A DNA stretch of 64,000 nucleotides. Origin: Bacilli bacterium (GTDB lineage: Bacteria; Bacillota_I; Bacilli_A; RF39; UBA660). The position numbers and the translations under genes are program-made. The notes under the pieces were generated by a model. That model saw only the letters and a program-made list of their open reading frames with translations, searched no databases and was not told where the DNA came from. Of this stretch, positions 17,685-63,760 are shown piece after piece. The stretch's first letter is position 1; each line of letters opens with the position of its first letter. The stretch covers positions 62,001 through 126,000 of the forward strand of contig JAFYER010000005.1 in NCBI GenBank assembly GCA_017544165.1, given 5' to 3'.

Positions 17685-18294
17685 TATAAACCTCTTCTGT
17701 TTTAATATTAAATATACTTCCGTTACTTACTACAATTATGACTTTTAATTCTGTATTATCGTATGTTGACTTATACCAGTAAGTATAGGTACTCATGTTT
17801 TTAGTGGAACTTACAAAATAATAATCATACTTTGGATTATTAACTGTAACACTATAGTCAGGATAAAAATAACTTTCATATAATATCGTCAGATAATTAT
17901 TACAAATAATCTGTCTATTAGGTTCAATTTCATAGTCTTCACTATAATATTTGTCAAAACCAATGTCCCGATATTTAATATAGCATTTGCCATTTTTTAC
18001 ATAGACACCTGATGTGTTTTGATCTGTTGTATAGTACGCATTACTGCGTATAATATAATCATCTAATAAAATCTCTTCGTCATTGTGAGTTAAATGGCTT
18101 AAATATTCGTCAATTATGTTTTTATCTTCTTTTCTAATCTTTTTTTCGTCATATTTATCAGTTTTATAAAAGCTAATGATTGTGTCAGCAACAAAAAGAT
18201 AATATGAGTCATCATTTTTATTAAACTTGCTAAATATAATAACCCCTATTATAAGTAATAATATAATTCCTAAAATTAAATAACTTTTTTTCAT
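17674..18294 (-). CDS. Membrane-anchored protein of unknown function
   Basis: A 206-residue protein with one N-terminal hydrophobic helix (about 5-22) and a Tyr/Asp-rich extracytoplasmic part. No lipobox Cys is present, so it is an anchored rather than lipidated protein. Two Cys (in GKCYIKY and IICNN) could form a disulfide. It shares a TAATG overlap with the M23 peptidase gene upstream, so the two are translationally coupled and may act together outside the cell. No family recognised. Confidence 0.65.
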   Translation of the reverse strand: MKKSYLILGIILLLIIGVIIFSKFNKNDDSYYLFVADTIISFYKTDKYDEKKIRKEDKNIIDEYLSHLTHNDEEILLDDYIIRSNAYYTTDQNTSGVYVKNGKCYIKYRDIGFDKYYSEDYEIEPNRQIICNNYLTILYESYFYPDYSVTVNNPKYDYYFVSSTKNMSTYTYWYKSTYDNTELKVIIVVSNGSIFNIKTEEVYNEV

Positions 18295-41650: not shown

Positions 41651-41677
41651 AAAAAAAAGCTTACATATTAATGTAAA
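41651..41677 (-). terminator. Terminator of the sortase-adhesin unit
   Basis: The stem TTACAT/ATGTAA (41661-41666, 41671-41676) includes the adhesin stop codon and is followed on the minus strand by a GC then a T run (41651-41658). Confidence 0.6.
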
Positions 41678-44600
41678 CTTTTCTTTTTAAATATATCAAA
41701 CCTATTAGTGATATATAAAGCATTAACGTATTAGCATTATATGCTACACTAGTATTTGCTTCAATACCTGTATGAGGTGGTTCAATAGTCCCTACTGCCT
41801 CATAACTATTAGTAATTACAAATCCGTTTTCAGCATCACCGGTTTTACTTGTAATATAATTATCAACTGATAATTCATCAACGTCATATGTAATTTCTTC
41901 ACCATTAATATATAGAGGTAAATCTTCGATAGTAATAGTCCAATCATCATCAGCAGTAATTTCATATGTATCATATAAATCACCATTAGCAAGTAATATT
42001 ATTGAAATAGAACTTGGTCGATTTTCTTCGTTTCCTTCATCTTCCCAATTTTTAGTTACTTCAATAGATATAGTTTGTAATGTATTAATGATTGTTAAAC
42101 CATCTTCACTATATGATGTGTCATATCCAGGTACTTCTACAGTTTCTTTTACTGTATATGTTATCTTTTCACCATCAATATAAGCTGGTAAATCTTCGAT
42201 AATCAATATCCATTCACCGTCTTCATCAGGTTCCATAACAATTTCGTCACCATAGTCTTCACTATTAGCTTGTAATTGAATAGTTATAGATTCAGGACGA
42301 TTTAATTCATCATCATTATCTTCCCAAACTTTTGTAATTGTAATGCTAGTTAATACTGTATTAGTAAATGTAAATCCTTCGTCGATATCTCCAGATTTAT
42401 TTGAAATATAACCTGGAACATCTTCTTCTTCGACATCGTATTCAATAACTTCGCCAGCTTCATCATAAATAGGTAGATTTTCAAATACAAATGTCCAATT
42501 ATTATCTGCATTTAATTCTGCTTCATCACCATTTGATAGGTTAACTATAACGCTATCAGGTCTAACACCTAATTCATCATCACCATCATCCCATACTTTG
42601 GTTACAGTAATATCGATACCAACATTTCTATTAGTATAAATTACAGAATAAACCATATTAGGTTTTTCAATAGTGCCTGTTAAAGTTTCACTATCTCCAA
42701 TAATTTCAATAGGCTCCTCTTCATCTGGATCATTGATAGTTAATTTAGTTTCTGAGAAAATAAACTTTTCATTTATATTAGATTCAGTAATTGTATAAGT
42801 TGTGCCAGATAATAAGTTAATAATACGAAGGTTCCAACCTTTTTTAATTCTTACGATAAAATCTTCACCACTTGGAGCGTAATAATAGTCAGTTCCTTCC
42901 TCTTTAGTGGCGCCAATTACAACAAGCCCATCCTCTTCTGTAATAAATGTATCACTAGTCTTAGATTCTTTTACTGAGAACCAAATATCCTCCCCATTTT
43001 TATCGACAACATTAATAGTAAATTCAAATAATTCATCATCAAAGGTTGGGAAACTTGGATCATCATATGTAACATCTTTTTCAATGTCAATATAACTACG
43101 GCGTTCATTTACAGCAGTTAATTCTGCTACACCCTCATTAAGTTCACCGACAACATAATAAACGCCATCAATTAAATAATATGTACCCTCTTCAGGTTCT
43201 ACATCGCCATTGTTAATTAATAAAGTTAATTCTCCATTAATAAGCATTGGTCTTACGATATCACTTTTAAGCTCCCAATTATACGCATCGGAACCAAGTT
43301 CACCAAATGAGTAATCATGACCAGAAGTAAGTAACTCAATAGAACCATCCTCATGAATAAGCATAATGCCAACAGAAATGTATGATGAAGAGCTATAATT
43401 ATTATCTTCATTTAATTCAATTGTATTAAATATTTCACCATCTTGAAGTACGTTAATTTGAATTGGTCTTTTAGGTCTAGTATCAATGTTGTTAACCCAA
43501 TCTTTTGTAATTGCTAATGATTGTGTATAGATCGTATTAACAGGGTCAGGATTATCAAAGTTAGATATTCCATTATTAGTTCCTCCTGGACGAGTATCTA
43601 CAAATGTAATATATGCTTCAGTATTTGTCTTTAATGTATAAGAAACATCATCGCCTTCGCCATTTCTTTCAATATATTGTTGTACCTCAGGATCTAATGT
43701 ATCGTAATTTTCAGGATGATTTTTTAAATCAGCAATTGTATCTAATGTATATTGGCTTGGCCAAACTTTAAATGTAACAGTGTATGTTACACCATTAAGT
43801 AGTACACCGTGGCTAGATAAATCCCATACTACAGAGTCGTTGCCATTCTCATCAGTTATAAGTTCTGCTGCAGTTGGAGCTTCAGAATGTAAACCATTAC
43901 CTTCAGCTGTCCATTGGATTTTAAATATAGTTTTAGTTATATTGTTTTCATCAGTAAAGCTTACGATATCACCAGTTATTGAGTGACTACCTTTACTATC
44001 TGTCCATGTTCCAGTATAATTAGTTCCATTATTTGTGAATGTAATTGTACTACCGGTAGTAGAATTTGAATAAGTATCGTTTTGACCCTCAACTGGAGTA
44101 ACATCCATTGATAGCCAATATTCATAAGAGGTTTCATCAATATCAAGTAAATGGAATGTTCCTTTAATAGAAGATGTAGTACCATCAACAACTTGAACTG
44201 AGCTAACGCCCATTGCTTGAATAACTTGACCTTTAATGTCATCAATTGCAGTTTGTAAGAAAGATGTCTCAGAAGCATTATAGTAATTAGGAGCAGAAAC
44301 TGTATTTTCGCCAACAGTTCTTTCTTCACCAGCAGCTTGGAATGAATTATACATTAAGTCATCTAAAAGGTCGGCTTCATCACCATAGATATAAATACCA
44401 TATAGTTCTGTATTTTCACCACCTTGAACGCTTCTAGCGAAAGGTAGAGCCTCATTATAATATCTTAAAAGTGTACTTAAAGAACTGCTTGGAGCTACAA
44501 TAGTACTAATACCATTGGCAGCAGTTGGAGCACCATCTGTAACAAATATTACATAAGTTTTATCATGATCTGAATTAGTTATAATTCCTTCAGTAAGCTC

Positions 44601-45590
44601 TAGAGCTGCTTGCCAGTTTGTTCCTAAAGTTCCGTAATTAAAATTAGTTCTTCCGTTTGTGCCATTAGAATCAAAAAAACTTAAAATCGAATCTAAATTA
44701 GTAGTTAGTCCTCTTCTCGTATTTCCAGTTGCATCGAATGTAACTAGAGCCATCTCAATATTTGATGGATCAGTCTTGTCTTGATACTCAGCTAAACTAG
44801 AAATAAATCCATGTACGACAGCTTCAGCTTGATCACCACGTCTATAACTACTAGTACCAGCTGTTGTAGACATACTTTGTGATGTATCATAAACGATAAT
44901 AACATTAACGTTTGTTTTATTATTACTTTCAGGAATGGAATCACCTGTAACTTCTAACGATAAAGTATATGTACCATCTTCGTTATCAATTAAATCTTTG
45001 TTGTGTTCAGGTTCACCCTCTGGATCAGTAACCTTGATAATATATTCATCACCATTTGTTGTATGAATTACTAAAGTCTCTTCAGTATCAAATGATCTTA
45101 AACTTTTAATTGCATAATCATTTGAGCCTTCTACTTTAGTTATACTTAATATAGTTTCATCACTTGTATAAATTTCATAAACATCTGATGTTACTATATT
45201 AATGTTTAGTTTTTGGTTTAATTGAGAAAGTAAGATTGTACTTCCGCCCTTAATATTAAAACTATATCCATCATGAGTAAATGTTACTTGATAATTATTT
45301 GTACCAAGTTGATATGAAACTTCTTCCATATTATCAACTGTATCAATAACCTCTACTACATTATTTTCACTTTCATTAAATTCTTCTGTTATAACCTCTA
45401 TTAGATTGTCTTCATCTATTGTATCTATTACAACTTCACTTAATTCTTCTTCACCATTTGTTTCTGTTACAACATCTACAATATTATTTTCATTATTAAT
45501 TAAGTTTTCAATTTCATCTGCATTTGTGTTAAGAGTAAACGCAAATAATGAAATCATAAATACTAATATATATGTAATTATTTTTTTCAT
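41661..45590 (-). CDS. Sortase-anchored VWA/Cna-B adhesin
   Basis: A 1,309-residue surface protein. After a signal peptide (about 1-24) comes an acidic Asn/Glu-rich N-terminus, then a von Willebrand A domain with MIDAS motif DTSQS near residue 235. Next are a divergent Cna-like domain (LAITKDWVNN) and another beta domain. Three Cna-B repeats follow, each with TKVW or TKNW at the front and FTN or ITN at the end, the Lys and Asn that form isopeptide bonds. The end has sorting signal PPHTG, a hydrophobic stretch and a basic tail. ATG 45590 has AAGGAGGG encoded within the sortase gene (TAATATG junction). It is likely a pilus-tip-like adhesin, alone with its sortase. Confidence 0.92.
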   Translation of the reverse strand: MKKIITYILVFMISLFAFTLNTNADEIENLINNENNIVDVVTETNGEEELSEVVIDTIDEDNLIEVITEEFNESENNVVEVIDTVDNMEEVSYQLGTNNYQVTFTHDGYSFNIKGGSTILLSQLNQKLNINIVTSDVYEIYTSDETILSITKVEGSNDYAIKSLRSFDTEETLVIHTTNGDEYIIKVTDPEGEPEHNKDLIDNEDGTYTLSLEVTGDSIPESNNKTNVNVIIVYDTSQSMSTTAGTSSYRRGDQAEAVVHGFISSLAEYQDKTDPSNIEMALVTFDATGNTRRGLTTNLDSILSFFDSNGTNGRTNFNYGTLGTNWQAALELTEGIITNSDHDKTYVIFVTDGAPTAANGISTIVAPSSSLSTLLRYYNEALPFARSVQGGENTELYGIYIYGDEADLLDDLMYNSFQAAGEERTVGENTVSAPNYYNASETSFLQTAIDDIKGQVIQAMGVSSVQVVDGTTSSIKGTFHLLDIDETSYEYWLSMDVTPVEGQNDTYSNSTTGSTITFTNNGTNYTGTWTDSKGSHSITGDIVSFTDENNITKTIFKIQWTAEGNGLHSEAPTAAELITDENGNDSVVWDLSSHGVLLNGVTYTVTFKVWPSQYTLDTIADLKNHPENYDTLDPEVQQYIERNGEGDDVSYTLKTNTEAYITFVDTRPGGTNNGISNFDNPDPVNTIYTQSLAITKDWVNNIDTRPKRPIQINVLQDGEIFNTIELNEDNNYSSSSYISVGIMLIHEDGSIELLTSGHDYSFGELGSDAYNWELKSDIVRPMLINGELTLLINNGDVEPEEGTYYLIDGVYYVVGELNEGVAELTAVNERRSYIDIEKDVTYDDPSFPTFDDELFEFTINVVDKNGEDIWFSVKESKTSDTFITEEDGLVVIGATKEEGTDYYYAPSGEDFIVRIKKGWNLRIINLLSGTTYTITESNINEKFIFSETKLTINDPDEEEPIEIIGDSETLTGTIEKPNMVYSVIYTNRNVGIDITVTKVWDDGDDELGVRPDSVIVNLSNGDEAELNADNNWTFVFENLPIYDEAGEVIEYDVEEEDVPGYISNKSGDIDEGFTFTNTVLTSITITKVWEDNDDELNRPESITIQLQANSEDYGDEIVMEPDEDGEWILIIEDLPAYIDGEKITYTVKETVEVPGYDTSYSEDGLTIINTLQTISIEVTKNWEDEGNEENRPSSISIILLANGDLYDTYEITADDDWTITIEDLPLYINGEEITYDVDELSVDNYITSKTGDAENGFVITNSYEAVGTIEPPHTGIEANTSVAYNANTLMLYISLIGLIYLKRKVYINM

Positions 45591-45591
45591 A

Positions 45592-46311
45592 TTAATAAAC
45601 CCTCCTTGCAATAATTAATAAATATTTTTTATTATAGTTTTCAAATCCTTTTTTAAAACTACATGTCTGTAAAATTAAAATTTTATCATCGGGTGATATG
45701 TTCTCCCCCGTATCATACATTGAATTGCTTTTCAATTTTTCTAAATGTGCAAACCAATCGTCTTTATTTGCAAAATCGATATTTAAATAATACCAATCTT
45801 TTGTTTCGACATATACAGAAAATATTTTATATCTCCACAAACCCTGCTCGGTAATGAGCTCTATATAAGGGTGATCATCATAATAATCTTTGCCGTAGTA
45901 ATTTTCTAATTCTTTAAAAGGTACGTCATAAGTTTTTGAATTGTGTCCATAAATTAATAAGGATGGAGACTTTTCAATATCGACGCGATAATCCATAAAA
46001 GGATTTCCAATAACATCTTTTTGCCCATAAATGTTTGTCGTCAAATATTTATTGTTATCAGTTGTCTTTGTAACGATAACGCTTAGTTCAGTATCAGGAA
46101 TATTTAATATACCCGTTATTTCATCATTATCATATTCTTGTTGTAAATCTTTAATACTAACGGTCTTATCATTATAATTATCTAGTTTGATTACAGATAA
46201 GTCTTTAGCTTTGGCATCAACTTTATCCGAAGATAGATTATAAATGATATATATTGATGTCAGTAATAAGATAACAAATAAAAATTTACTAAATAGTCTT
46301 TTACTCCTCAT
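45592..46311 (-). CDS. Class B sortase
   Basis: A 239-residue transpeptidase that anchors proteins to the wall. It has an N-terminal membrane helix (about 9-27). Catalytic His is H123 in IYGHNSKT, Cys is C217 in LQTCSF, and the Arg is R236 or R237 in IIARRV. Length, the HPYIELIT segment and DTGENISPDDKIL follow the SrtB class. The substrate is surely the adhesin encoded one base downstream, whose signal PPHTG differs from the canonical NPQTN of Staphylococcus SrtB. ATG has GGAGAG. Confidence 0.92.
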   Translation of the reverse strand: MRSKRLFSKFLFVILLLTSIYIIYNLSSDKVDAKAKDLSVIKLDNYNDKTVSIKDLQQEYDNDEITGILNIPDTELSVIVTKTTDNNKYLTTNIYGQKDVIGNPFMDYRVDIEKSPSLLIYGHNSKTYDVPFKELENYYGKDYYDDHPYIELITEQGLWRYKIFSVYVETKDWYYLNIDFANKDDWFAHLEKLKSNSMYDTGENISPDDKILILQTCSFKKGFENYNKKYLLIIARRVY

Positions 46312-46640: not shown

Positions 46641-46663
46641 AAAAAAACGAGTTTATAAACTCG
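46641..46663 (-). terminator. Terminator of the AAA+ operon
   Basis: CGAGTTT/AAACTCG (46648-46663) followed on the minus strand by seven T. It lies just after the AAA+ stop. Confidence 0.85.
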
Positions 46664-46667
46664 CGAT

Positions 46668-48164
46668 TTACGAAGCACTTATTGCTCGATCCTTACCCCA
46701 TTTTTTAATTGCTTCTATCCTTTCAGGATTAGTTTTAGAAATGGAAGATGCTTTATTAAAATACTCCTCTATAAGTTCTTTAGAAAGTGAAAGCTGATCA
46801 GCTATAACATCGTATGATATGTTACGAATAGTAGCCTCTATATCAGAAGAAGCAAACCCATTAGTTAGCATAATTAATTTATTAATAAACTCATCATCAA
46901 CTCTAACTTGTAAATATTTTGCAAAATACAATTGTAATATTTCTTTACGTTCTTTTTCGTTTGGCAAGTCGACAAAGAAGATTTCATCAAACCTGCCTTT
47001 TCTTAGAAGCTCAGCTGGAAGCGATGTTACTTCATTGGCAGTGGCAACTACAAATACTTCTTTATCGCTTTCTTGAAGCCAGTATAAGAATTGACCAATC
47101 ATTCTCGATGTTACCCCCGAAGAATCATTTGCCCCCGATAATCCCTTCTCAATTTCATCTATCCATAATATACATGGTGACACATGCTCAGCGGTTTTCA
47201 AAGCCTGTTTTAATTGTTCTTCGCTTTGACCAACATATTTACCCTGTACAGTAGCAAAGTCTAAAAGATATAATGGCAAATTCCATAGTTTAGAAATTGC
47301 CTTAGCTGTTAAAGATTTTCCACAACCTGGAACACCAACAACTAAAATACCTCTTGGTGGTTTAATACCCCTCTTTTTTAAATCTTCTTTTTTTGATACA
47401 TCAAATAACTGTTTTTTTGAAGTTAACCATTTTTTTAAATTGTCTAATCCCCCAAAAACTACATCGTCAATTGAAACTTGTTCAAGGCCATCCATATTTG
47501 CAAACAAATTGCTTTTAGCGAATTTTAAATCAATTAAGTCTTCATCAGTTATACTTCGTTTGGCAATAAGAACAGATAACACATTTTTAATCTCCGCTTC
47601 ACTAAGTCCAAGTAGAATCGTCGAAGCTTCTTTATATTTATTTTCATCCCAAGAAACTTCAATTTCATTTTTATATTTATCAATACAATTATGTAATAAA
47701 GATAATATTTCTTCTTCATTTGGCAAAGCTAAATCAATGTTCATTCCGAGCCTACGAAGATTAGGCCACACAGATTGTTCCGTAATAATTATAATACTAC
47801 ATGATCTTTCCTCGGCTAATGTTACAACATCACATAAAAACTCTGATGTAACATTATCTTCAGATATATCACTGACATCACAAAGTACATATGTAACATT
47901 GCGCTTATTTTTTAAATCGTCTGCAATAAAAGATAAAACACTAATTAAGTTTTTTTCGTTACTAATTATCTCTCTTGAATTTATATCATACATCCCCTTT
48001 GACATACTATGAATATAAATATTTGTGGCAAAATTATCATGAATTTGGGATATCATTTTTACTACTCTATCTTTTTCTAGCGTATTTAAAATTATTATAG
48101 GTATACGAGCCATTAAATAACTCTCAAGTTTTTCTTTAGCTAAATTATAATTCATCTTTCTCAT
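46668..48164 (-). CDS. Ycf46-like AAA+ ATPase
   Basis: A 498-residue single-domain AAA+ ATPase. An N-terminal domain (about 1-220) without membrane helix precedes the ATPase domain. Walker A GVPGCGKS lies near 270-277, Walker B ILWIDEIEK near 325-333 and the arginine finger segment LLRKGRFDEIFFVDLP follows sensor 1 TANE. It resembles cyanobacterial and plastid Ycf46 (COG0464 group). It may unfold or remodel a protein, and the small proteins encoded with it are candidate partners. ATG 48164 overlaps the preceding gene by 20 bases; ATG 48155 is the alternative. It ends in a strong terminator. Confidence 0.88.
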   Translation of the reverse strand: MRKMNYNLAKEKLESYLMARIPIIILNTLEKDRVVKMISQIHDNFATNIYIHSMSKGMYDINSREIISNEKNLISVLSFIADDLKNKRNVTYVLCDVSDISEDNVTSEFLCDVVTLAEERSCSIIIITEQSVWPNLRRLGMNIDLALPNEEEILSLLHNCIDKYKNEIEVSWDENKYKEASTILLGLSEAEIKNVLSVLIAKRSITDEDLIDLKFAKSNLFANMDGLEQVSIDDVVFGGLDNLKKWLTSKKQLFDVSKKEDLKKRGIKPPRGILVVGVPGCGKSLTAKAISKLWNLPLYLLDFATVQGKYVGQSEEQLKQALKTAEHVSPCILWIDEIEKGLSGANDSSGVTSRMIGQFLYWLQESDKEVFVVATANEVTSLPAELLRKGRFDEIFFVDLPNEKERKEILQLYFAKYLQVRVDDEFINKLIMLTNGFASSDIEATIRNISYDVIADQLSLSKELIEEYFNKASSISKTNPERIEAIKKWGKDRAISAS

Positions 48165-48585
48165 TCTCCTTTATTACATATTGATTTATAATTCTAATCT
48201 TTTCCTCATCTATGAAAAAACTTTTTAAACTGCCCAGCATATTATTGACATTATTTTTTAATGATAATTTAAATGCTTCCCGATTTTCTTCTTTAATATG
48301 TTTAACATTTATAAACTTTTTTAATAGTTTTATTTCATTATTAATTATACTCATTTCAAGGGCAAGTTCATCTGAACTGAATGTAGAGTTTTTTATTTTT
48401 GATATAGTATTATCTAAAATATATCCAAGTCTTTCCGTCATAAAGTAATTAACTTGAACGATAAAACGATCATATCGCCTACCATTTAGCGAAATATCAG
48501 CATTAGCTATTTTATCAATATCATTATCACTAATTGGTGATGTAATCATGTCATCAAGATAATTTACTAATTCATAATATGTCAT
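48145..48585 (-). CDS. Small helical protein of the AAA+ operon
   Basis: A 146-residue protein predicted all-helical, charged, with no membrane helix and no known motif. It begins by a four-base ATGA overlap with the 30-residue peptide gene and ends inside the AAA+ gene start. I do not recognise a family. It could be an adaptor or a substrate of the ATPase. Confidence 0.7.
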   Translation of the reverse strand: MTYYELVNYLDDMITSPISDNDIDKIANADISLNGRRYDRFIVQVNYFMTERLGYILDNTISKIKNSTFSSDELALEMSIINNEIKLLKKFINVKHIKEENREAFKLSLKNNVNNMLGSLKSFFIDEEKIRIINQYVIKENEKDEL

Positions 48586-48674
48586 CCGTCCATTTCCCCC
48601 CGATCAACAGGATTAAATGGTGGCAGCAAATCCCAATCAGGAATTTCAATATTATCTTTCGTTTCTTCTTCCAT
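48582..48674 (-). CDS. 30-residue acidic peptide
   Basis: An ORF of 30 codons with a strong AGGAGGT site, six bases before its ATG. The sequence is acidic with a core EIPDWDLLPPFNPVDR (residues 10-25), rich in Pro and aromatic residues as in short docking peptides. It starts about 10 bases after the 557-residue gene stop and ends in an ATGA overlap with the 146-residue gene, so it is fully embedded in the operon. Its position and ribosome site make it credible; function unknown. Confidence 0.7.
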   Translation of the reverse strand: MEEETKDNIEIPDWDLLPPFNPVDRGEMDG

Positions 48675-48684
48675 AATCTACCTC

Positions 48685-50358
48685 CTAAAAATTGCTATCA
48701 TCAAATTTATTTAAAAAGCGTATAATAAAATCATGATTGTCTTTTGCCCTTTTTTTCATGAAATGGACATCAACTATTTCTGCCATAACATTTTCTAAAT
48801 TAAAATAACAATTATCTAATTCCTCGTTATATTCCTTAAAGATAATATCACGAGTTTTAAGTGATTCATTCACAAAATAAATACCCAGGATAAGTCCTAT
48901 TATTATTAATGACAAACCGATAGCAAAATTTAGTGATATGCTAAATACTACGCCAAGTAATCCTAGAATAAATGCTATAATAGTTTTAATATTTAATAAA
49001 GGATATTTGCGAAGGTTGCTATTTAATTTGTTATCGATATGCGACTTCAAATCCATTTTAAGATTATTTTCATTTGAACCATCTAAAGTGCTTCCTTGCC
49101 ATTTTTCTATTGTAATTAATGTATTATAACTTATATCATCATTAAGCGGTAATGTTTCCTCAATAGCCTTTTGGATAATGTCTTTCAAATAGCTTATTGA
49201 AAGCTTTTTAGAATTAATTGAAACCTTAGAAGTCGATAATAAGATATTGCTAAAAATAGTATATAAATCATTTTGAACACTATAAGCCCTAGAGGCAAAC
49301 TCAAATTGTAAATTTGCTTTATTTGTATCACCTTCATTATCGATTATTAAACGATTTTTAATAATGCTTTGTTTAAGATTATATTCATTATCTTCATAGT
49401 TATCCACCATTTCTGTAATAACTGTTTTTACATTTTTGTCTTTATTTACGCTATTATCAATAAGCTCGTTAAACGCATAATAAATATTATAGTAAGTCTT
49501 GGCATTACTAACCACGGATAGTACGCTATTTAAGTTATTAGCATACCGATTTATATACACAAAACTATCAGCATTGGCGTTTTCTTTTTTACTATCCAAA
49601 AAATAGCCCCATCTTTTCACCTGATAATCGATAATATCACTATCAGAATTTAAAGTACTACAAAAATCATTTAAATAGCGCTTAATTAATGCACACATAT
49701 TATTTGGAATAACATTACTTGCGTAAGCATCAAGCAAAAAAACAAAACTACTATCTAGCGCTTTTGGATTTTGTTTATCGAGATAGTATTTTAACCACAC
49801 TTCGGCTGCTTTATCCCGCCCTAGTTCTAAATGGACAAGAAAAAGTAACAAAGCCGTTTTCCTTTCATCTAATTTTAATGCTTCTTTTAAAGCAGAATTA
49901 GCTTTAGCCTTATTATTACTAAACCAACTGCTAATTGCTAATAAAACGTATGATAAATAATAACCCGGTGCTTTGAGCAAAATACCTTCTGATTCATCTA
50001 TTAAGTGATGTTTACTAACAAAATCATGTTTAACACTTTCAAGAAGGCCTTTAGTCATTAAGCGAATATTATCATAACTTCCATACTTTTTATTTAACTC
50101 AGCTTCCTTTAGGATAATATCATTTTGAGCATTAGATACTATAGTATTGTTTCTAATATCTTGCATAAAAAGCTTTATTTCTTCCTCGAGAGAAAGTACT
50201 GAAGATTTAATATCGTTTACATCATTATTAAAAGAAGATATTTGACCGTTAATATCTATTATATCTCCAGTTACGGAATTAATATTTTGATTTAACACTT
50301 GAATATTTTTTTCTAAAACATCTAAATTAGCCGCAGATATTAATAATGGATTACTCAT
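48685..50358 (-). CDS. Coiled-coil/TPR-like membrane protein of the AAA+ operon
   Basis: A 557-residue protein. N-terminal residues 10-75 have heptad character; about 110-230 look like helical TPR-type repeats (LLAISSWFSNNKAKANSAL, then LALLLFLVHLELGRDKAAEVW-like helices). Two adjacent membrane helices lie near 455-500 and a helical C-terminal tail follows. No signal peptide, so both ends are probably cytoplasmic. I do not recognise a family. It lies between mscS (17-base gap) and the 30-residue peptide (10 bases). Confidence 0.7.
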   Translation of the reverse strand: MSNPLLISAANLDVLEKNIQVLNQNINSVTGDIIDINGQISSFNNDVNDIKSSVLSLEEEIKLFMQDIRNNTIVSNAQNDIILKEAELNKKYGSYDNIRLMTKGLLESVKHDFVSKHHLIDESEGILLKAPGYYLSYVLLAISSWFSNNKAKANSALKEALKLDERKTALLLFLVHLELGRDKAAEVWLKYYLDKQNPKALDSSFVFLLDAYASNVIPNNMCALIKRYLNDFCSTLNSDSDIIDYQVKRWGYFLDSKKENANADSFVYINRYANNLNSVLSVVSNAKTYYNIYYAFNELIDNSVNKDKNVKTVITEMVDNYEDNEYNLKQSIIKNRLIIDNEGDTNKANLQFEFASRAYSVQNDLYTIFSNILLSTSKVSINSKKLSISYLKDIIQKAIEETLPLNDDISYNTLITIEKWQGSTLDGSNENNLKMDLKSHIDNKLNSNLRKYPLLNIKTIIAFILGLLGVVFSISLNFAIGLSLIIIGLILGIYFVNESLKTRDIIFKEYNEELDNCYFNLENVMAEIVDVHFMKKRAKDNHDFIIRFLNKFDDSNF

Positions 50359-50375
50359 GCTTTGCCTCCACTTTC

Positions 50376-51239
50376 TTATTTATTTTTAGTTTTTTTACTT
50401 TTGACAGGCTCGCCATTTTTTGTGATAACATTTATATAGTTATATGGAATTTCAATGCCTTCATTATCAAATCTTTTTTTAATAATATAATAAAGATTAA
50501 ATATATTTTCGTGAGTCATAGAATTATCTGCACCCCATACCCATCCACGAAGAACAATACTCGACTCATCCCATCTTATAACCCGAACTTTAGGAAATTC
50601 AACGTGTTTGTTTATACCATTAGTATTAGGATTATAAAGCTTATTCATTTCTTCTTTTAAAATCTTAATTGCTTTATCGACATCAGCTGTATACGCAATA
50701 GGAAATTCAACGAAGCGACAAACCTCATTATCAGTATGATTATAGTTTTCAATTGTCATGTCATCTAATCTTGAGTTGGGAATAATTACTCGACGATTGT
50801 CAATTGTTCTTATGACTGTGTGCCGGAGGGTAATATCCTCGACATATCCACTCAAATCAATATCTACACATTTAACATAGTCACCTATTTCAAATGGATC
50901 ACTAAAAGCTATTCCCAAACCGCAGAAAAAATTTGATAAAGTTTTTTGAGCAGCATAACCAAGTATTAACGATATGATTCCAGCACCAGAAAGTACACTC
51001 CACGAGATAGAATGAAAGCTGGGTATTTGAAATAAACACGCAATAAATGTAACAATAAATAAAATAATGTTTTTTATTCTTTTAATTATTTTAATATTAG
51101 TTAAAATCGACTTTTTTTTCTTTATATTTTTATTATTATAGCTATGGTAAAGCAAATAATTTAATAAAACATTAATAATTGCCATCGATAAAACAATAAT
51201 AATGATTTTTAAAATAACCGGTAAAACTTCTTCTTTCAT
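50376..51239 (-). CDS. MscS family mechanosensitive channel
   Basis: A 287-residue small-conductance mechanosensitive channel. Three N-terminal membrane helices end in the pore helix TM3, GAGIISLILGYAAQKTLSNFFCG. The cytoplasmic beta domain begins with DPFEIGDYVKC and IVEDITLRHT-like strands, followed by IIPNSRLDDMTIENY. It releases solutes during osmotic down-shock. The gene precedes the 557-residue protein by 17 bases, as part of a longer operon. Confidence 0.9.
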   Translation of the reverse strand: MKEEVLPVILKIIIIVLSMAIINVLLNYLLYHSYNNKNIKKKKSILTNIKIIKRIKNIILFIVTFIACLFQIPSFHSISWSVLSGAGIISLILGYAAQKTLSNFFCGLGIAFSDPFEIGDYVKCVDIDLSGYVEDITLRHTVIRTIDNRRVIIPNSRLDDMTIENYNHTDNEVCRFVEFPIAYTADVDKAIKILKEEMNKLYNPNTNGINKHVEFPKVRVIRWDESSIVLRGWVWGADNSMTHENIFNLYYIIKKRFDNEGIEIPYNYINVITKNGEPVKSKKTKNK

Positions 51240-51262
51240 ACTAACAACTCCCTTTTTTCATT

Positions 51263-52216
51263 TCATATAACAAATACAACAATATAATAAATAAAATAAA
51301 TAGCTAACATAATGAATCCTTGAAGTTTAGAAATGGTTTTGTTTGTTTCTGCAAAAACAAACAATAATAGTGAAGATAAAACAAGCATTATTAAATCAAC
51401 AGGATGAAAACTTGATGGTGTAATAGCTCCATATATGACAACTGGTATTCCAAGAACTACACATATATTAAATATGTTGCTACCTATAATATTACCGATT
51501 AATAAATCTTGTTCTCCCTTCTTTGAGGATACCATCGTAGTAACAAGCTCAGGAAGAGATGTTCCTATCGCAATAATCGTGAGAGCAATTAACCTATCGC
51601 TCAATCCTAATATTTTAGCAACCCCCGAAGCATTGTCTACGACTAAATCACTTCCAAATATTATCCCTAATAATCCAATAACTACATATAATAAGGATTT
51701 AAATATGCCAAATTTAGGTTTCTCATCTCCGTCTATTTCCTTTTTATGTTTAGTAAGAGATATTAAATAATATAAAAATATGGTAAAGTAAAGCAAAATA
51801 ATTATTCCATCACTTCTTGATATTTGATTAGCAAGGCCATTTGCAAGCCTAATGTCTAAAAAAAGTACCACAAGTGCTGTAGAAAACAAAAGACAAAGCG
51901 GCAATTCTTTTCTTACAGTATTTACCTTTACTTTAACCGGATGAATTACTGCAGCAAATCCTAATATCAAAAGAGAATTGGTTATACAACTACCTATTAC
52001 ATTTCCTAATACCATATCAGTATTACCTGATGCCAAAGCATTCATTGAGACAGCAAATTCAGGGGCTGATGTACCAAATGCTATAATTGTTAAACCAATT
52101 AGCATTTTAGACACTTTGAAATTTTGAGCTGTCGAAGAAGCACCATCGACAAATATGTCAGCGCCTTTTATTAAAAAAACAAATCCCAATACTAATAGTA
52201 AGATGTGAATAAGCAA
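51263..52216 (-). CDS. Calcium/cation antiporter, YrbG-like
   Basis: A 317-residue CaCA-family exchanger with ten membrane helices. The two alpha repeats show the ion-site motifs GTSAPEFAVSMNA (N-half) and GTSLPELVTTMVSS (C-half), with EGs-type helices near GNVIGSCITNS and GNIIGSNIFN. It would exchange Ca2+ or Na+ for cations. It starts with TTG, seven bases after an AGGAGGAG site (unusual start, well placed). It begins 28 bases after the inactive signal peptidase. Confidence 0.9.
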   Translation of the reverse strand: MLIHILLLVLGFVFLIKGADIFVDGASSTAQNFKVSKMLIGLTIIAFGTSAPEFAVSMNALASGNTDMVLGNVIGSCITNSLLILGFAAVIHPVKVKVNTVRKELPLCLLFSTALVVLFLDIRLANGLANQISRSDGIIILLYFTIFLYYLISLTKHKKEIDGDEKPKFGIFKSLLYVVIGLLGIIFGSDLVVDNASGVAKILGLSDRLIALTIIAIGTSLPELVTTMVSSKKGEQDLLIGNIIGSNIFNICVVLGIPVVIYGAITPSSFHPVDLIMLVLSSLLLFVFAETNKTISKLQGFIMLAIYFIYYIVVFVI

Positions 52217-52244
52217 AAAAATCTCCTCCTTAAAAATACTAATT

Positions 52245-52763
52245 TTATTTTACAGGTCCAAGTTTAGTTATAGGCCATAGTCTAAATACTATCTTTCCAA
52301 CTATATCGCTTTTTGATATTAACCCTACTTTTTCATTACGACTATCAAATGAAAAAGTACGATTATCACTCATTAACAAATATTTATCATCAGGAATTTT
52401 TTCATACAAAAAATCTTCGGTTACATCTTTAGAAAGGAAAAACTCGTCTACATACTCGTCATTTACATATAATTTATGTTCCTTATATTCTATCTTTTCA
52501 CCCGGAAGCCCGATAACACGAGCTATAAAATGTTTGGGATCCTTATAACAAACAGAAACTACATCTTTTCTTTTAATATCACCAAAATGATACGAAGCTT
52601 TTTCGATTAATACAATATCATTATTACTTAAATTGGGTTCCATATAATCATTTGATACTTTTTGAAACGTTATTACAAATAAAAGTAGAAAAGCCATAAT
52701 ACCTAAAAAAAGAATAACTTTTATACTATCAAATAGTCCTTTTATTATATTTTTTAATATCAT
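52245..52763 (-). CDS. Inactive signal peptidase I homologue (pseudoenzyme)
   Basis: A 172-residue S26 signal peptidase fold: one N-terminal helix (about 13-32), then boxes B-E, all recognisable by their VIGLPGEKIEY and LMSDNRTFSFDSR segments. It aligns without gaps to the intact paralogue at 63236-63760, but the nucleophile is Tyr (Y40, where the paralogue has S40 in SSMKPT) and the general base is Ala (A81, where the paralogue has K81 in LVKRVIG). The codons TAT and GCT were checked in the DNA. Such a catalytically dead paralogue is known as SpsA in Staphylococcus. A binding or regulatory role is likely. It heads the operon with the cation antiporter. Confidence 0.9.
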   Translation of the reverse strand: MILKNIIKGLFDSIKVILFLGIMAFLLLFVITFQKVSNDYMEPNLSNNDIVLIEKASYHFGDIKRKDVVSVCYKDPKHFIARVIGLPGEKIEYKEHKLYVNDEYVDEFFLSKDVTEDFLYEKIPDDKYLLMSDNRTFSFDSRNEKVGLISKSDIVGKIVFRLWPITKLGPVK

Positions 52764-52786: not shown

Positions 52787-52816
52787 ATTATATCACTAAA
52801 TATATGAAGATGTAAA
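52787..52816 (-). promoter_or_regulatory. Promoter of the pseudo-signal-peptidase operon
   Basis: TTTACA (52811-52816), 18-base spacer and TATAAT (52787-52792) on the minus strand, with TAGTGA directly before the -10 and GTGCG before the -35. The promoter of the active signal peptidase shares all of these features at 63782-63811. Confidence 0.75.
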
Positions 52817-59478: not shown

Positions 59479-62400
59479 TTAATGAATATTATTAATTCTA
59501 ATATTTTTATAAGTTGAGTTACCTGCTAAATCTTTAACAGTTATAAATTCATTTGTATTAGCAGTATAAACTTTTGTAAATGTTTTAGCATCTACTCTTG
59601 TCCAACCATCAATATCTTGTAAATCTTCATTACCAGTAATAGTAACAGTTACAGGTCCACTTGTATTTGATGTTGTACTATATGATACGGTTACAGATGG
59701 AGCTGTTAAATCAGGTGTAAATGAATATGTATTAGTATTACCAGCTACATCGGCAAAATCAACAGTCACGCTAGTAGCTCTAGTAAAATCTTGGTAATAT
59801 TCTGTATCACTAACTTTTGTCCAGCCACTTGAAGTAATTGTTACAGCTTCACTAAAGATTAGAGTAACCTTATCTGTTTTTCTATAAGAACCAGTAACAA
59901 CTTGATTAATTGAACTTACTTCAGGAGCAGTTTTGTCAATATTAGTTATTACAATATTTGCACTGGCACTATTGCCAACTAAATCGTACACAATTACTGA
60001 TTCATTTATATTATCAGTATATTCTTTTATAAATTTAGTTGATGATACTTTTGTCCAGCCTTCAATATCTTGTAAGTCTTTATCTGAAGTAATTGTTGCA
60101 GTTACATCTTGATTTGTTAGATTTGTTTCACTATAACCAACTTCTAGATTAGGTGCTGTTTTATCAATATTTTCAATAACGATATTATCAGTAGCAGTAT
60201 TTCCCGCTAAGTCATATACAGTAATTGATTCATTAACATTACCATCAAATGCTTTAGTAAACGTCATACTATCAGCAGTTGTCCAACCAGAAATATCTTG
60301 TAATTTTTCACTAGCAGAAAGTGTTACAGTTACATCTTGATTTGTTGGATTTGTTTCACTATATGAAATTGATATTGTAGGAGCCGTTCTATCGATGTTT
60401 TCGATTACAATACTAGCAGTTGAACTATTTCCTACTAAATCAGTTGCAGTTATAGTCTCATTTGCATTTTCAGCATATTCTTTCGTAAATGTCTTAGCAT
60501 CTACTTTTGTAAAGCCATCAATATCTTGAATATCTTCATCTGAAGTAATTGTTGCAATTACATTTTGATTAGTTGGATTTGTTTCACTATATGAAACATT
60601 TAATGTAGGAGCTGTTTTATCAATATTAGTTATTTCAATATTAACAGTTGCTGTGTTACCTGCTAAATCATAGAAAGTTACTGTTTCAGTAGCATTATCA
60701 TCATATGTTTTAGCATATGTATTTTCACTATCAGTAGCAGCCCATCCATCAGTTTCTTGTAGTTTTTCATCTGAAGTAACTGTTACAACTACCTCGCCAT
60801 TAGTTGGTTCTGTAGTACTATAAGAAGATATGCTAACTGTAGGAGCTGTCTTATCAATATTTTCAATTACAACATTAACAGTTGCAGTATTACCTAGTAA
60901 ATCGCTTACAGTTATAGTTTCTGTAGCATTATAAGCAAATTCTTTAGTAAATTCTTTAGCTGATACTTTTGCCCAGCCTTCGATATCTTGAATATCTTCG
61001 TTAGATGAAATAGTAGCAACTACACTTTCGTTTGTAGGATCTTCAGTGCTGTAAGATACAGTAATTTCAGGAGCTGTTTTATCAATATTAGTTATTTCAA
61101 TATTAACAGTTGCAGTATTGCCCGCTAAATCCTTAACTTCAACACTTTCTGTAGTATTTTCTTCATATGTTTTTGTAAATTCAGTTGCTGATACTTTTGC
61201 CCAACCTTCGATATCTTGTAAGTCTTTGCTTGAAGTAATTGTTGCAACAACATTATCTTTAGTTGGATTAGTATTGTCATAAGATACGCTTACTTCTGGA
61301 GCTACTCTATCAATATTTTCAATACTGATATTTGCCGTAGCTTGATTACCAATTAAATCTAATACAGTAATTGTTTCAGTAGTATTATCTTCATAAACTT
61401 TTGTAAATTCAGTTGCTGATACTTTTGTCCAGCCCTCAATATCTTGTAAATCTTCATTTGAATTAATGGTTACAGTTACATTTTCATTTGTAGGATCTTC
61501 AGTGCTGTATGATACTGTAATTTCAGGAGCTGTCTTATCAATATTAGTTATTTCAATATTAACAGTTGTAGTATTACCAACTAGATCTTTTACAATAATA
61601 CTTTCAGTAGTATTTTCTTCATATACTTTTGTAAATTCAGTTGCTGATACTTTTGTCCAGCCTTCGATATCCTGTAAGTCTTCATCTGAAGTAATTGTTG
61701 CTGTTACAGCCTTATCAGTAGTAACAGAAGGATCATAAGATATAGTAATCATTGGAGCAGTTGCATCAATTGAATAGCTATAAGTATTTGTATTACCAGC
61801 TTCATCAGTAAATTCAATAATGCCATCAAGTGACATTGTAAATGTTGAAGTATAAGTTATAGAGTCACTACTTGACCATGTATTATCACTAATAGTTACT
61901 TTTTCATCAAATGTTACAGTAGCTTTAATCATAGGTGAACTACTACTTTGAGCTTCTGTTTCAAATGAAACAACCTCAGGAGCTACTCTATCGATATTTG
62001 TTACTTCGACAGCAACAGTTGTACTATTTCCAGCAATATCGATAATTGTTATATCTTCAGTAGTATTTTCACTATAAGTTTTTGTAAATGACTTATCATC
62101 TGTTTTAGTCCAACCTTCAATATCTTGAATGCTTTCATTAACAGATAGTGTAGCTACAACATCTTCATTTGTAGGAACAGTCTTACTATAAGATACTACA
62201 CCTTCAGGAGCAATAGTATCAATGGTAAAGTTAACCGTTGTTTCGTTAAATGCTTTATCTACAACAGTAAGAGTATATACACCATTACTAACAGTATCGC
62301 CATTTTCAAATGATACTTCTTCACCATCTTTAGTAAGTGTTGCATCAAATTCATTATCATCAGTAATTTGAATAGCCGTTTCTTTATTTAATATTGCTTC

Positions 62401-63114
62401 GTCTTCAATATTAACTTCAGGAGCAGTTTCATCATTTAATACATTAAGTATCTCATCTAAAGTTTCTGTAAGTTCTTCTTTTAAATCATCGTTTGTTAAA
62501 TTAGAAACTTTATCGCCAACTTCATTTTCATCAGCAAAATCGCGAGCTTCATCAATATCTTTTACGCTTTCAGCATTTTCAACCATTTCTGATAAGCTTT
62601 CAACAAGTTCTTTAGTTTCAATAGCGTTTGCTACTTCCTCTAAACGTGATTCTAGTTCACTTTTCTTATCGCTATCAGTAACTTTTTCTACTAATTTTTC
62701 AGCAGCATCATAAGAATCTTGATCTAATTTGTCTTCAGCATTTTCAACAGCTGCTAAAGCCTTTTCATAAGAATCATCAACCTCGTCTTCAGTTGACTCA
62801 TTATTAGTCTCAGTAGGTGTAGTATTAGTTTGACTATTGTCAGTAGTGGTATTTGTATTATCTGTAGTAGTATTACTTGCTTGACCATTATTAGTTGTAT
62901 TATTTACATTGTTGTTTGTCGTATTATTCGTAGTACTATTTGTTGTACTATTTGTTTTACCATCATCAGTAGTGTTATTGACTACTTTATTGGTATTTGT
63001 TGCATTTACATTATTGTCATCATCATTATCTTTGCCACTCGCAAAAGCAAAAACTGTTAAACCGATTAACAATAATATAATTATTGCAATAATAATTTTT
63101 TTCTTGTTATTCAT
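59479..63114 (-). CDS. Giant membrane-anchored Ig-like repeat protein
   Basis: A 1,211-residue surface protein. One N-terminal anchor (about 5-25), a Thr/Asn-rich low-complexity stretch (about 35-105), a helical acidic region (about 110-225) and then twelve tandem Ig-like modules of about 84 residues. Each starts near ID..APE and carries a DLQDIEGWTKV-like strand; several are nearly identical. No LPXTG or other wall anchor is present, so the N-terminal helix holds it. The AGGAGG ribosome site is strong. It is probably an adhesin or spacer stalk. The near-identical repeats could change number by recombination. Confidence 0.88.
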   Translation of the reverse strand: MNNKKKIIIAIIILLLIGLTVFAFASGKDNDDDNNVNATNTNKVVNNTTDDGKTNSTTNSTTNNTTNNNVNNTTNNGQASNTTTDNTNTTTDNSQTNTTPTETNNESTEDEVDDSYEKALAAVENAEDKLDQDSYDAAEKLVEKVTDSDKKSELESRLEEVANAIETKELVESLSEMVENAESVKDIDEARDFADENEVGDKVSNLTNDDLKEELTETLDEILNVLNDETAPEVNIEDEAILNKETAIQITDDNEFDATLTKDGEEVSFENGDTVSNGVYTLTVVDKAFNETTVNFTIDTIAPEGVVSYSKTVPTNEDVVATLSVNESIQDIEGWTKTDDKSFTKTYSENTTEDITIIDIAGNSTTVAVEVTNIDRVAPEVVSFETEAQSSSSPMIKATVTFDEKVTISDNTWSSSDSITYTSTFTMSLDGIIEFTDEAGNTNTYSYSIDATAPMITISYDPSVTTDKAVTATITSDEDLQDIEGWTKVSATEFTKVYEENTTESIIVKDLVGNTTTVNIEITNIDKTAPEITVSYSTEDPTNENVTVTINSNEDLQDIEGWTKVSATEFTKVYEDNTTETITVLDLIGNQATANISIENIDRVAPEVSVSYDNTNPTKDNVVATITSSKDLQDIEGWAKVSATEFTKTYEENTTESVEVKDLAGNTATVNIEITNIDKTAPEITVSYSTEDPTNESVVATISSNEDIQDIEGWAKVSAKEFTKEFAYNATETITVSDLLGNTATVNVVIENIDKTAPTVSISSYSTTEPTNGEVVVTVTSDEKLQETDGWAATDSENTYAKTYDDNATETVTFYDLAGNTATVNIEITNIDKTAPTLNVSYSETNPTNQNVIATITSDEDIQDIDGFTKVDAKTFTKEYAENANETITATDLVGNSSTASIVIENIDRTAPTISISYSETNPTNQDVTVTLSASEKLQDISGWTTADSMTFTKAFDGNVNESITVYDLAGNTATDNIVIENIDKTAPNLEVGYSETNLTNQDVTATITSDKDLQDIEGWTKVSSTKFIKEYTDNINESVIVYDLVGNSASANIVITNIDKTAPEVSSINQVVTGSYRKTDKVTLIFSEAVTITSSGWTKVSDTEYYQDFTRATSVTVDFADVAGNTNTYSFTPDLTAPSVTVSYSTTSNTSGPVTVTITGNEDLQDIDGWTRVDAKTFTKVYTANTNEFITVKDLAGNSTYKNIRINNIH

Positions 63115-63180
63115 TTAAACCTCCTAAAAAATATTCGAATATAGTCTAGACGAATTTCCCTACATCCAAATTCATAGTCT

Positions 63181-63221
63181 ATTATAAATAATTAATTAAT
63201 TTTTTTCAACGTATTTACGTT
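63181..63221 (-). promoter_or_regulatory. Promoter and palindrome of the Ig-repeat gene
   Basis: TTGAAA (63204-63209), a 17-base spacer and TATAAT (63181-63186) on the minus strand. A palindrome AACGTA/TACGTT (63208-63221, two-base centre) overlaps the -35 outer edge, a possible operator. TAGACTAT occurs twice in the leader. Confidence 0.65.
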
Positions 63222-63235
63222 AAATAATTGTCTAC

Positions 63236-63760
63236 TTATTTTTTCTTCATAAAGCCAATTTTATTAAGGGGCCATATGCGAAAAATAGCTTTACCAATTA
63301 TGTCACTTTTTTGAATTAGTCCAACCTTTTCATCTCTACTATCAAGTGAGTCACTGCGATTATCTCCTAGAACAAAAAACATATCATCAGGAATTTTACT
63401 AAAAGAAAAATCCTCGGTTACAATATTATTTAAATAAGGCTCATCAACTTTAGAACCATCTACAAATAACTCTCCATTAACATATTCAATAGACTCTCCT
63501 GGTAAACCAATAACTCTTTTTACTAAAAATTTAGAATCAGCATAATAAAAAGAAATAATATCACCACGCTTAACATTTTTAAAACGATAACTAAGTTTGT
63601 CAAGTAAAACGATATCTTGATTATTAAGGGTTGGTTTCATTGAACTACCCACTATCTGCTGAAAACCAACGACGTAAATTGCAATAAGTAATACAACTAT
63701 TATAAAAAATATAAGTTTAATTGAATCAATAATAAACTCTTTTATATCTAAAAAATCCAT
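63236..63760 (-). CDS. lepB: Signal peptidase I, active form
   Basis: A 174-residue type I signal peptidase of the bacterial LepB class. One N-terminal helix (about 14-33), nucleophile S40 in GSSMKPT, general base K81 in LVKRVIGLPGE, and the boxes D/E (VLGDNRSDSLDSRDEVG-like) are all present. It removes signal peptides from exported proteins. It is preceded by a promoter almost equal to that of the inactive paralogue at 52.2 kb. The gene follows rpmF after a terminator. Confidence 0.95.
   Translation of the reverse strand: MDFLDIKEFIIDSIKLIFFIIVVLLIAIYVVGFQQIVGSSMKPTLNNQDIVLLDKLSYRFKNVKRGDIISFYYADSKFLVKRVIGLPGESIEYVNGELFVDGSKVDEPYLNNIVTEDFSFSKIPDDMFFVLGDNRSDSLDSRDEKVGLIQKSDIIGKAIFRIWPLNKIGFMKKK

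What the first reader, a model, noticed from the sequence alone, without database searches (positions are those of the whole stretch)
46668..52763. Seven-gene operon: pseudo-SPase, antiporter, MscS, TPR-like membrane protein, micropeptide, helical protein, AAA+
All genes are on one strand with gaps of 28, 23, 17 and 10 bases, then ATGA and 20-base overlaps, between one promoter and one terminator. Known families (CaCA, MscS, AAA+) are joined to three unknown proteins and an inactive protease. I know no described system with this set. A membrane stress or ion response complex with AAA+ remodelling of the membrane TPR-like protein is a hypothesis.
Basis: partly seen in the sequence, partly recalled or inferred. 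Interest (0 to 1): 0.78.

Follow-up and report, generated by a model that had tools for sequence, protein, structure and literature searches.

The report
Conserved four-gene AAA+ membrane cassette
Four of the seven genes, including a tiny 30-residue protein, form a set that has stayed together in distantly related bacteria around an ATP-driven motor and a membrane scaffold, and no description of it was found; the other three genes (an inactive protease, an antiporter and a mechanosensitive channel) look like local neighbours.

Summary
The seven ORFs, gaps and overlaps are as described, but the seven are not one conserved unit. The last four (557-aa TPR-like protein with a hydrophobic hairpin, 30-aa peptide, 146-aa helical protein, AAA+) are: AAA+ and 557-aa protein occur in the same 4 of 117 family genomes (the window's and three others), adjacent. 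In 84 mapped loci from four phyla the detected core genes share one strand and order (6 showed the scaffold alone), often with a fifth ~160-aa protein not found in this genome. The peptide is real: its P-x-W-x-x-x-P motif follows the scaffold gene in 77 of 84 loci, 0 of 84 antisense. Of 87 other loci, none encodes the SPase or MscS near the core and one has an antiporter about 4 kb away. The SPase-like protein has lost Ser, Lys and a nearby Gly, like S. pyogenes SipA; a sortase/Cna_B locus lies next door. Best reading: a membrane-anchored AAA+ remodelling complex with small adaptors beside lineage-specific envelope genes. The function is inferred. No family model named the scaffold or 146-aa protein, and no paper on the set was found in an open-access library.

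The parts
48685..50358 (-). core gene 1: 557-aa TPR-like scaffold; N-terminal helices read as coiled coil, helical repeat region, hydrophobic 452-500 (read as TM hairpin), long C-terminal helix
   Evidence: AF2 pLDDT 83.7, pTM 0.67; hydropathy; homologues in 4 of 117 family genomes and 84 of 88 mapped loci, most of them fetched by this protein
48582..48674 (-). core gene 2: 30-aa peptide (IPDWDLLPP...), the shortest member seen of a peptide family with motif P-x-W-[DNS]-[LIV]-x-P
   Evidence: motif 77 of 84 sense vs 0 of 84 antisense; AGGAGG before ATG
48145..48585 (-). core gene 3: 146-aa helical-type protein without hydrophobic segment, ATGA overlap with gene 2
   Evidence: relatives in 66 of 88 mapped loci; alignment A2; hydropathy
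46668..48164 (-). core gene 4: 498-aa AAA+ ATPase, N-terminal domain without P-loop plus C-terminal AAA domain (residues 273-399) with all ATPase motifs
   Evidence: Walker A GVPGCGKS, Walker B LWIDEIEK, RKGRFDE
46647..46664 (-). terminator-like hairpin and T-run after the AAA+ stop
50376..51239 (-). accessory: MscS-type channel
   Evidence: 0 of 87 other core loci; same contig but 13 kb off in G102
51263..52216 (-). accessory: CaCA-type calcium/sodium antiporter, TTG start
   Evidence: TIGR00367 over cut-off; 1 of 87 other core loci, L078; homologues on other contigs in G069, G102, none in G007, G057
52245..52763 (-). accessory: signal-peptidase-I-like protein lacking catalytic residues (Y40, A81, S132)
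   Evidence: 0 of 87 other core loci; active-looking paralogue at 63236-63760
52787..52816 (-). promoter-like site (TTTACA-18-TATAAT, TG extension)
   Evidence: consensus match only

Best explanation
Genes 4-7 encode a self-contained membrane-anchored AAA+ remodelling complex. The 557-aa protein is the membrane receptor and scaffold: a cytosolic coiled coil and TPR-type helical platform on a two-helix membrane hairpin. The 498-aa protein is the motor: a classical-AAA ATPase ring whose C-terminal domain hydrolyses ATP and whose N-terminal domain is a degenerate, non-catalytic remnant. The 146-aa protein and the micropeptide are adaptors that tie motor, scaffold and client together through short linear motifs. 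The complex would pull apart or rearrange membrane-proximal protein assemblies. The SPase-like, CaCA and MscS genes are lineage-specific envelope genes probably co-transcribed here: possible clients or co-regulated neighbours, not core parts. Shown: gene set, conservation, order, intact and lost motifs. Inferred: complex formation, topology, ATP-driven remodelling, nature of the clients.
For: AAA+ and 557-aa protein occur in the same 4 of 117 family genomes (own one included), adjacent and in the same order; in G057 the four core genes stand alone with opposite-strand genes on both sides. In 84 mapped loci from Bacillota, Pseudomonadota, Spirochaetota and Fusobacteriota the detected core genes are on one strand and the order scaffold, helical, AAA+ is never broken (6 of 84 showed the scaffold alone). 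Pairwise distances of the three large core proteins correlate at r = 0.93-0.96 (not corrected for shared ancestry). Micropeptide motif in 77 of 84 loci, 0 of 84 antisense. The AAA domain has all ATPase motifs and its best solved relatives are VCP/Cdc48 ATPases. The scaffold has one hydrophobic block at 452-500 and mostly TPR-protein structure matches. 16 of 68 sampled operonic neighbours elsewhere carry a zinc ribbon, a few are envelope enzymes.
Against: No physical interaction, activity or client is shown. The TPR match is weak (no Foldseek E at or below 0.001; best VIA Z 9.9 over 99 residues, rmsd 5.3, which for helical repeats may mean only a common arrangement). Profile comparison of N- and C-terminal AAA halves is weak (27%, E 6.7e-4). 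The window copy lacks the AAA+ C-terminal tail that most other copies carry, and the fifth protein was not found in its genome, so it may work differently or be decaying.
Confidence: 0.5

Rival explanations
1. Sporadic defence or conflict system: the AAA+ and scaffold sense an attack at the membrane and switch on a response.
For: Patchy occurrence (4 of 117 family genomes; 5 of 392 phylum genomes, own one included); presence on two plasmid types; the full-length AAA+ matches a phage-protein family of unknown function (phrog_8638); partial AAA matches to IetA; among 115 flanking proteins PADLOC matches included JetA, JetB, JetC, Drt2, PDC-S08 and 3 to mad3, with SspA and DndA (first 25 of 38 families shown); JetA, JetB and JetC lie in a row about 0.5 kb 5' of the core in Anaerocolumna L112.
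Against: No PADLOC match for the scaffold or 146-aa protein; the families seen most often among the same 115 flanking proteins are not defence-specific (nucleotidyl transferase, ABC, gyrase, MnmE, first 25 of 118 shown); no effector domain recognised; defence neighbours were counted without a control set.
Confidence: 0.2
2. One reading: a membrane-stress or ion-response complex in which antiporter, MscS, pseudo-SPase and AAA+ act together.
For: Tight spacing and one plausible promoter and terminator in the window; an antiporter about 4 kb past the core in L078; an MscS 13 kb from the core in G102.
Against: Near the core in 87 other loci: SPase 0, MscS 0, CaCA 1; in G057, G069 and G102 the homologues are absent or on other contigs, bar the G102 MscS.
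Confidence: 0.1
3. The SPase-like protein is a SipA-like pilus-assembly factor serving the adjacent sortase and VWA/Cna_B surface protein, and is only co-transcribed with the AAA+ core.
For: Loss of Ser, Lys and the neighbouring Gly, the same three sites changed in S. pyogenes SipA (PMC4049620 passages; placing P0001 Ser132 at the Gly site by the DNR motif is from recall); sortase at 45592-46311 and a VWA plus 3x Cna_B protein with an EPPHTG sorting-type end at 41661-45611.
Against: A terminator-like site and the six other operon genes lie between it and the sortase; no chain named SipA among its 9 PDB sequence matches at E 0.001; no second pilin gene identified.
Confidence: 0.3
4. Assembly chaperone of a secretion or DNA-translocation apparatus.
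For: A HerA-like ATPase family in 10 of 88 loci and a zinc-ribbon membrane protein family in 8 of 88, the former directly 5' of the scaffold in 8 of the 10; HerA domain shown for L075; in G102 the core is followed by VirB4-like and coupling-protein-like genes (named by eye).
Against: Such genes are in a small minority of loci and none was recognised beside the window operon.
Confidence: 0.12

Closest known systems
Bacterial AAA+ with two AAA domains, N-terminal copy inactive, found with PspA; and Vps4-like AAA+ with a TPR+6TM protein (PMC11237479, passages and section 18 read)
   Same: AAA+ with a degenerate N-terminal half; in the second case a TPR membrane protein takes the place of Snf7; membrane remodelling proposed
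   Different: No PspA in 8 genomes searched, 7 of which carry the scaffold family; scaffold reads as 2, not 6, TM helices; micropeptide, helical and ~160-aa partners not mentioned in the section read
FtsH ternary systems, MoxR-vWA conflict systems (PMC7159879, passages and sections 21 and 24 read)
   Same: AAA+ with inactive first and active second domain, extra alpha-helical proteins, small peptides in the operon
   Different: No MoxR or vWA co-chaperone gene in the window operon; the copies fetched here are mostly from Bacillota, while the paper reports multicellular deltaproteobacteria, actinobacteria and planctomycetes
Ycf46-like AAA+ family (name recalled; no call gave it for this protein)
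   Same: Similarity over 90-99% of the length at about 31-36% to AAA+ of cyanobacterial and Bacillus plasmids
   Different: In a Bacillus plasmid the AAA+ sits with DUF1257 and DUF2997 genes (DUF2997 also under the Pseudanabaena hit), not with this scaffold and peptide
Streptococcus pyogenes SipA (PMC4049620, passages read)
   Same: SPase-I-like, catalytic Ser and Lys replaced, nearby Gly also replaced, sortase locus nearby
   Different: P0001 has Tyr, Ala and Ser at these sites and sits in the AAA+ operon, not inside a pilus operon

Membership tests
classical AAA ATPase | Walker A, Walker B and second region of homology with arginine | tested here: met
   PF00004 E 1e-29; invariant G277 P279 G280 G282 K283 S284, D336 E337, R388 G390 R391 F392 D393 in 11 aligned proteins
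two-AAA protein with inactive N-terminal copy | N-terminal half homologous to AAA but without a P-loop | tested here: inconclusive
   no P-loop seen in residues 1-225; N vs C profile comparison 27%, E 6.7e-4
PspA/ESCRT-type AAA+ system | PspA partner encoded in the genome | tested here: not met
   PF04012 in 0 of 8 genomes, 7 of them with the scaffold family; rings in 9 of 14 controls. Snf7 was not searched
MoxR-vWA FtsH ternary system | MoxR and vWA genes in the operon | tested here: not met
   none among the seven window proteins; the only vWA seen nearby is in a surface protein
TPR protein | recognisable TPR repeats or fold | tested here: inconclusive
   no TPR model in Pfam for P0004; structure matches mostly to TPR proteins but weak
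signal peptidase I (active) | Ser-Lys dyad | tested here: not met
   Tyr40 and Ala81 at the sites
SipA-like pilus factor | SPase fold without dyad, needed for pilus polymerisation | not testable with these tools
   sequence loss shown; function needs experiment
MscS channel | MscS beta-domain | tested here: met
   PF00924 E 2.5e-19
CaCA antiporter | Na_Ca_ex domains | tested here: met
   PF01699 in two stretches, TIGR00367 over cut-off
known anti-phage system | match to system components beyond the AAA domain | tested here: not met
   only the AAA+ matches; none for P0001-P0004 or P0006 at E 0.1; the 30-aa peptide was not scanned

The most novel reading that the evidence does not exclude
A widespread, undescribed bacterial counterpart of the p97/Vps4-type machines: a membrane receptor with a TPR groove, a AAA+ ring and a micropeptide together read a code of short terminal motifs (the R-K-V-L-V tail of the AAA+, similar basic-hydrophobic ends on the scaffold, the W-x-x-x-P peptide) to recruit and extract membrane clients. 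The ~160-aa protein with invariant Cys, His, His and Glu would be a fifth part, lost together with the AAA+ tail in the window's lineage.
Probability: 0.12. Interest if true: 0.85.

Novelty: new variant of a known kind. Interest (0 to 1): 0.6.

Why it matters
The scaffold, the 146-aa protein and the ~160-aa partner have no named family in Pfam, NCBIfam or PHROGs, and the first two none in PADLOC; the micropeptide is recognised only where relatives carry a zinc ribbon. Yet the set has kept its gene order across phyla and occurs in culturable bacteria (Streptococcus oralis, Enterococcus, Companilactobacillus, Achromobacter, Variovorax). It is therefore a testable AAA+ system in tractable organisms, and it gives a 30-residue ORF a clear conserved context.

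Tried and rejected
Seven-gene unit: rejected as a conserved unit. Empty site in the same-genus genome G007: the 5' neighbour gene is present but the gene next to it differs from the window's, so no empty site could be shown. PspA link: not found. The ~160-aa protein was searched in G000, G057, G069, G102 with a 28-row model and not found, but that search had no positive control and the genomes are 88-97% complete. Fold of the ~160-aa protein: pLDDT 76.6; no significant match (best Foldseek E 0.23, best VIA Z 3.7), which shows nothing about novelty. Profile of the 146-aa family against PDB gave weak annexin matches (no single stretch passing) and helical-stem matches; taken as noise. PADLOC hits near the core were counted on 115 of 190 listed flanking ORFs, from 14 of 21 isolate loci, without a control. 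Operonic neighbours: 68 hand-picked from the lists (short ORFs and some others left out), only the first 25 of 119 families shown. The terminal-motif rule was chosen after seeing the sequences; strict rule: AAA+ 66 of 74, scaffold 4 of 84, helical 5 of 66, ~160-aa 0 of 66, peptide 0 of 59, non-core ORFs of 100 aa or more 6 of 908, so only the AAA+ tail is supported by it. Against a strict tail/fifth-protein link: 6 AAA+ have the tail with no ~160-aa gene found in the locus, 3 the reverse (some are contig ends or ORF-rule faults). Absence of both in the four family copies is one clade, hence one event, and the tree warns of long branches that may be joined falsely, the window's among them. Gene maps used a simple longest-ORF rule: 2 of 88 loci (L101 Bifidobacterium, L115 Comamonas) gave no core gene, L056 and L105 no scaffold, and several GC-rich ones miss genes. 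In the peptide test 7 of 84 loci had no motif, at least 2 of them because the contig ends. No search found a paper describing the set: in an open-access library only; from these I opened PMC11237479 and PMC7159879, and PMC4049620; the rest I saw as listings.
Full report
The seven ORFs run on the minus strand: SPase-like 52763-52245, CaCA 52216-51263 (TTG start), MscS 51239-50376, 557-aa protein 50358-48685, 30-aa peptide 48674-48582, 146-aa protein 48585-48145, AAA+ 48164-46668. A good promoter-like site lies just upstream and a hairpin with a T-run three bases after the last stop, but the scans as a whole give no more sites than shuffles, so single-operon status is plausible and not proven.

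Family searches named four of the seven: S26 peptidase, Na/Ca exchanger, MscS, AAA. The 557-, 30- and 146-aa proteins have no family above cut-off in Pfam or NCBIfam; the 557- and 146-aa proteins have none in PADLOC and nothing informative in PHROGs. The SPase-like protein keeps the family's sequence but has Tyr40, Ala81 and Ser132 where its paralogue at 63236-63760 (48% identical) has Ser, Lys and Gly.

Neighbourhood conservation was then tested. In 117 genomes of the same family (own one included) the AAA+ is found in 4 and the 557-aa protein in the same 4, next to each other. In G057, G069 and G102 the order is 557-aa, small peptide, 143- to 147-aa protein, AAA+, with no SPase, antiporter or MscS in the 15 to 19.5 kb read (peptide of G069 read). 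Their homologues of the three upstream genes are absent or lie elsewhere. The nearest case is an MscS in G102, on the same contig but about 13 kb from the core.

Outside the family the same set appeared in a Komagataeibacter plasmid, a Comamonas megaplasmid and a Fusobacterium record, and a scan of the 84,980-species genome collection with an alignment of the 557-aa family confirmed 212 relatives, of which the best 80 were fetched. Gene maps of 88 loci (those 80, seven others and the window) show the 557-aa family in 84, AAA+ in 74, the 146-aa family in 66, a ~160-aa family in 66, and the small peptide in 58. The loci were mostly chosen by the 557-aa family, so its own count is by construction; the others are results. 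Some absences are contig ends or faults of the simple ORF rule. In the 84 maps with the scaffold, the detected scaffold, helical, AAA+ and ~160-aa genes are on one strand, and the order scaffold, helical, AAA+ is never broken; the ~160-aa gene is either first or last; 6 maps show the scaffold alone. A tblastn of the window's first three proteins against the 87 other loci found SPase in none, MscS in none and an antiporter (43% identity) in one, L078, on the same strand about 4 kb past the core.

The 30-aa ORF is a real gene. A motif P-x-W-[DNS]-[LIV]-x-P occurs within 1.1 kb 3' of the 557-aa gene in 77 of 84 loci and in 0 of 84 on the opposite strand of the same stretches. Called relatives are 57 to 284 residues, many with a zinc ribbon before the motif; the window's is the shortest seen. 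The AAA+ carries a basic-hydrophobic C-terminal tail (usually T-R-K-V-L-V) in 66 of 74 loci against 6 of 908 non-core ORFs. The window copy and its three family relatives lack that tail, fall in one clade (100/99, with a long-branch warning), and no ~160-aa protein was found in their genomes (no positive control). The window system thus looks like a reduced variant.

Structure: the 557-aa model (pLDDT 83.7, pTM 0.67) is almost all helix, with one hydrophobic block at 452-500. Its solved neighbours are mostly TPR proteins but weak, so TPR-like is fair as a description only. The ~160-aa partner has invariant Cys96, His105, His116 and Glu143 in 28 aligned rows and a mixed alpha/beta model without a significant match.

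Mechanism. What is shown: a conserved gene set with an ATPase that has all motifs, a helical scaffold with a hydrophobic hairpin, a small helical-type protein and a motif-bearing peptide, diverging in step (r 0.93-0.96 among the three large core proteins, not corrected for ancestry). What is inferred: that they form one complex which uses ATP to rearrange membrane-proximal proteins. The three upstream genes in the window are best seen as local envelope genes. For the SPase-like one a second role is likely enough to test: S. pyogenes SipA has lost Ser, Lys and the nearby Gly and is needed for pilus polymerisation (PMC4049620, passages read), and a sortase plus a VWA/Cna_B surface protein follow the operon.

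Known relatives. The nearest ideas in print that I found are Vps4-like AAA+ with TPR membrane proteins and two-domain AAA+ beside PspA (PMC11237479, section 18), and FtsH ternary conflict systems (PMC7159879, sections 21 and 24). None has this gene set in the parts read, PspA was not found in 8 of 8 genomes tested, and MoxR and vWA genes are absent from the operon. Ycf46 is a recalled name for the wider AAA+ family; in a Bacillus plasmid such a AAA+ sits with DUF1257 and DUF2997 genes instead. Distribution is patchy (5 of 392 phylum genomes, own one included), and one locus has JetA, JetB and JetC just 5' of the core, which also fits a defence role; that rival is kept at 0.2.

Noticed in passing
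window 41661-46311: Sortase followed by a 1316-aa VWA plus three Cna_B surface protein ending in EPPHTG and a membrane stretch: a pilus- or adhesin-like locus directly 3' of the operon.
   Followed up: partly
window 59479-63760: Active-looking signal peptidase (Ser and Lys present) beside a 1211-aa repetitive protein with an N-terminal membrane stretch.
   Followed up: partly
L075:5378-8969; also L053, L057, L071, L073, L077, L085: Zinc-ribbon membrane protein and HerA-like ATPase genes directly 5' of the core in several Clostridia.
   Followed up: partly
L112:3027-7985: JetA (partial), JetB and JetC matches in a row about 0.5 kb 5' of the core in Anaerocolumna; a viperin-like (pVip) match at 17184-18587.
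   Followed up: partly
L078:17894-18835: The only other core locus of 87 with a relative (43%) of the window's antiporter, about 4 kb past the core on the same strand.
   Followed up: partly
G375:C1:38471-41780 (L156, L157): Two neighbouring matches of the 557-aa family in one genome; one match reads a stop codon.
   Followed up: no
L012:11579-18155 and L142: In G102 the core lies in a stretch with VirB4-like, coupling-protein-like and multi-TM genes (named by eye), with an MscS 13 kb away.
   Followed up: partly
L048:5956-9039: Related AAA+ on a Bacillus licheniformis plasmid sits with DUF1257 and DUF2997 genes, a different partner set for the same AAA+ family.
   Followed up: no
L046 (NZ_CP084075.1): A 2.1-Mb Fusobacterium record is filed as a plasmid; its size suggests a chromosome.
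   Followed up: no
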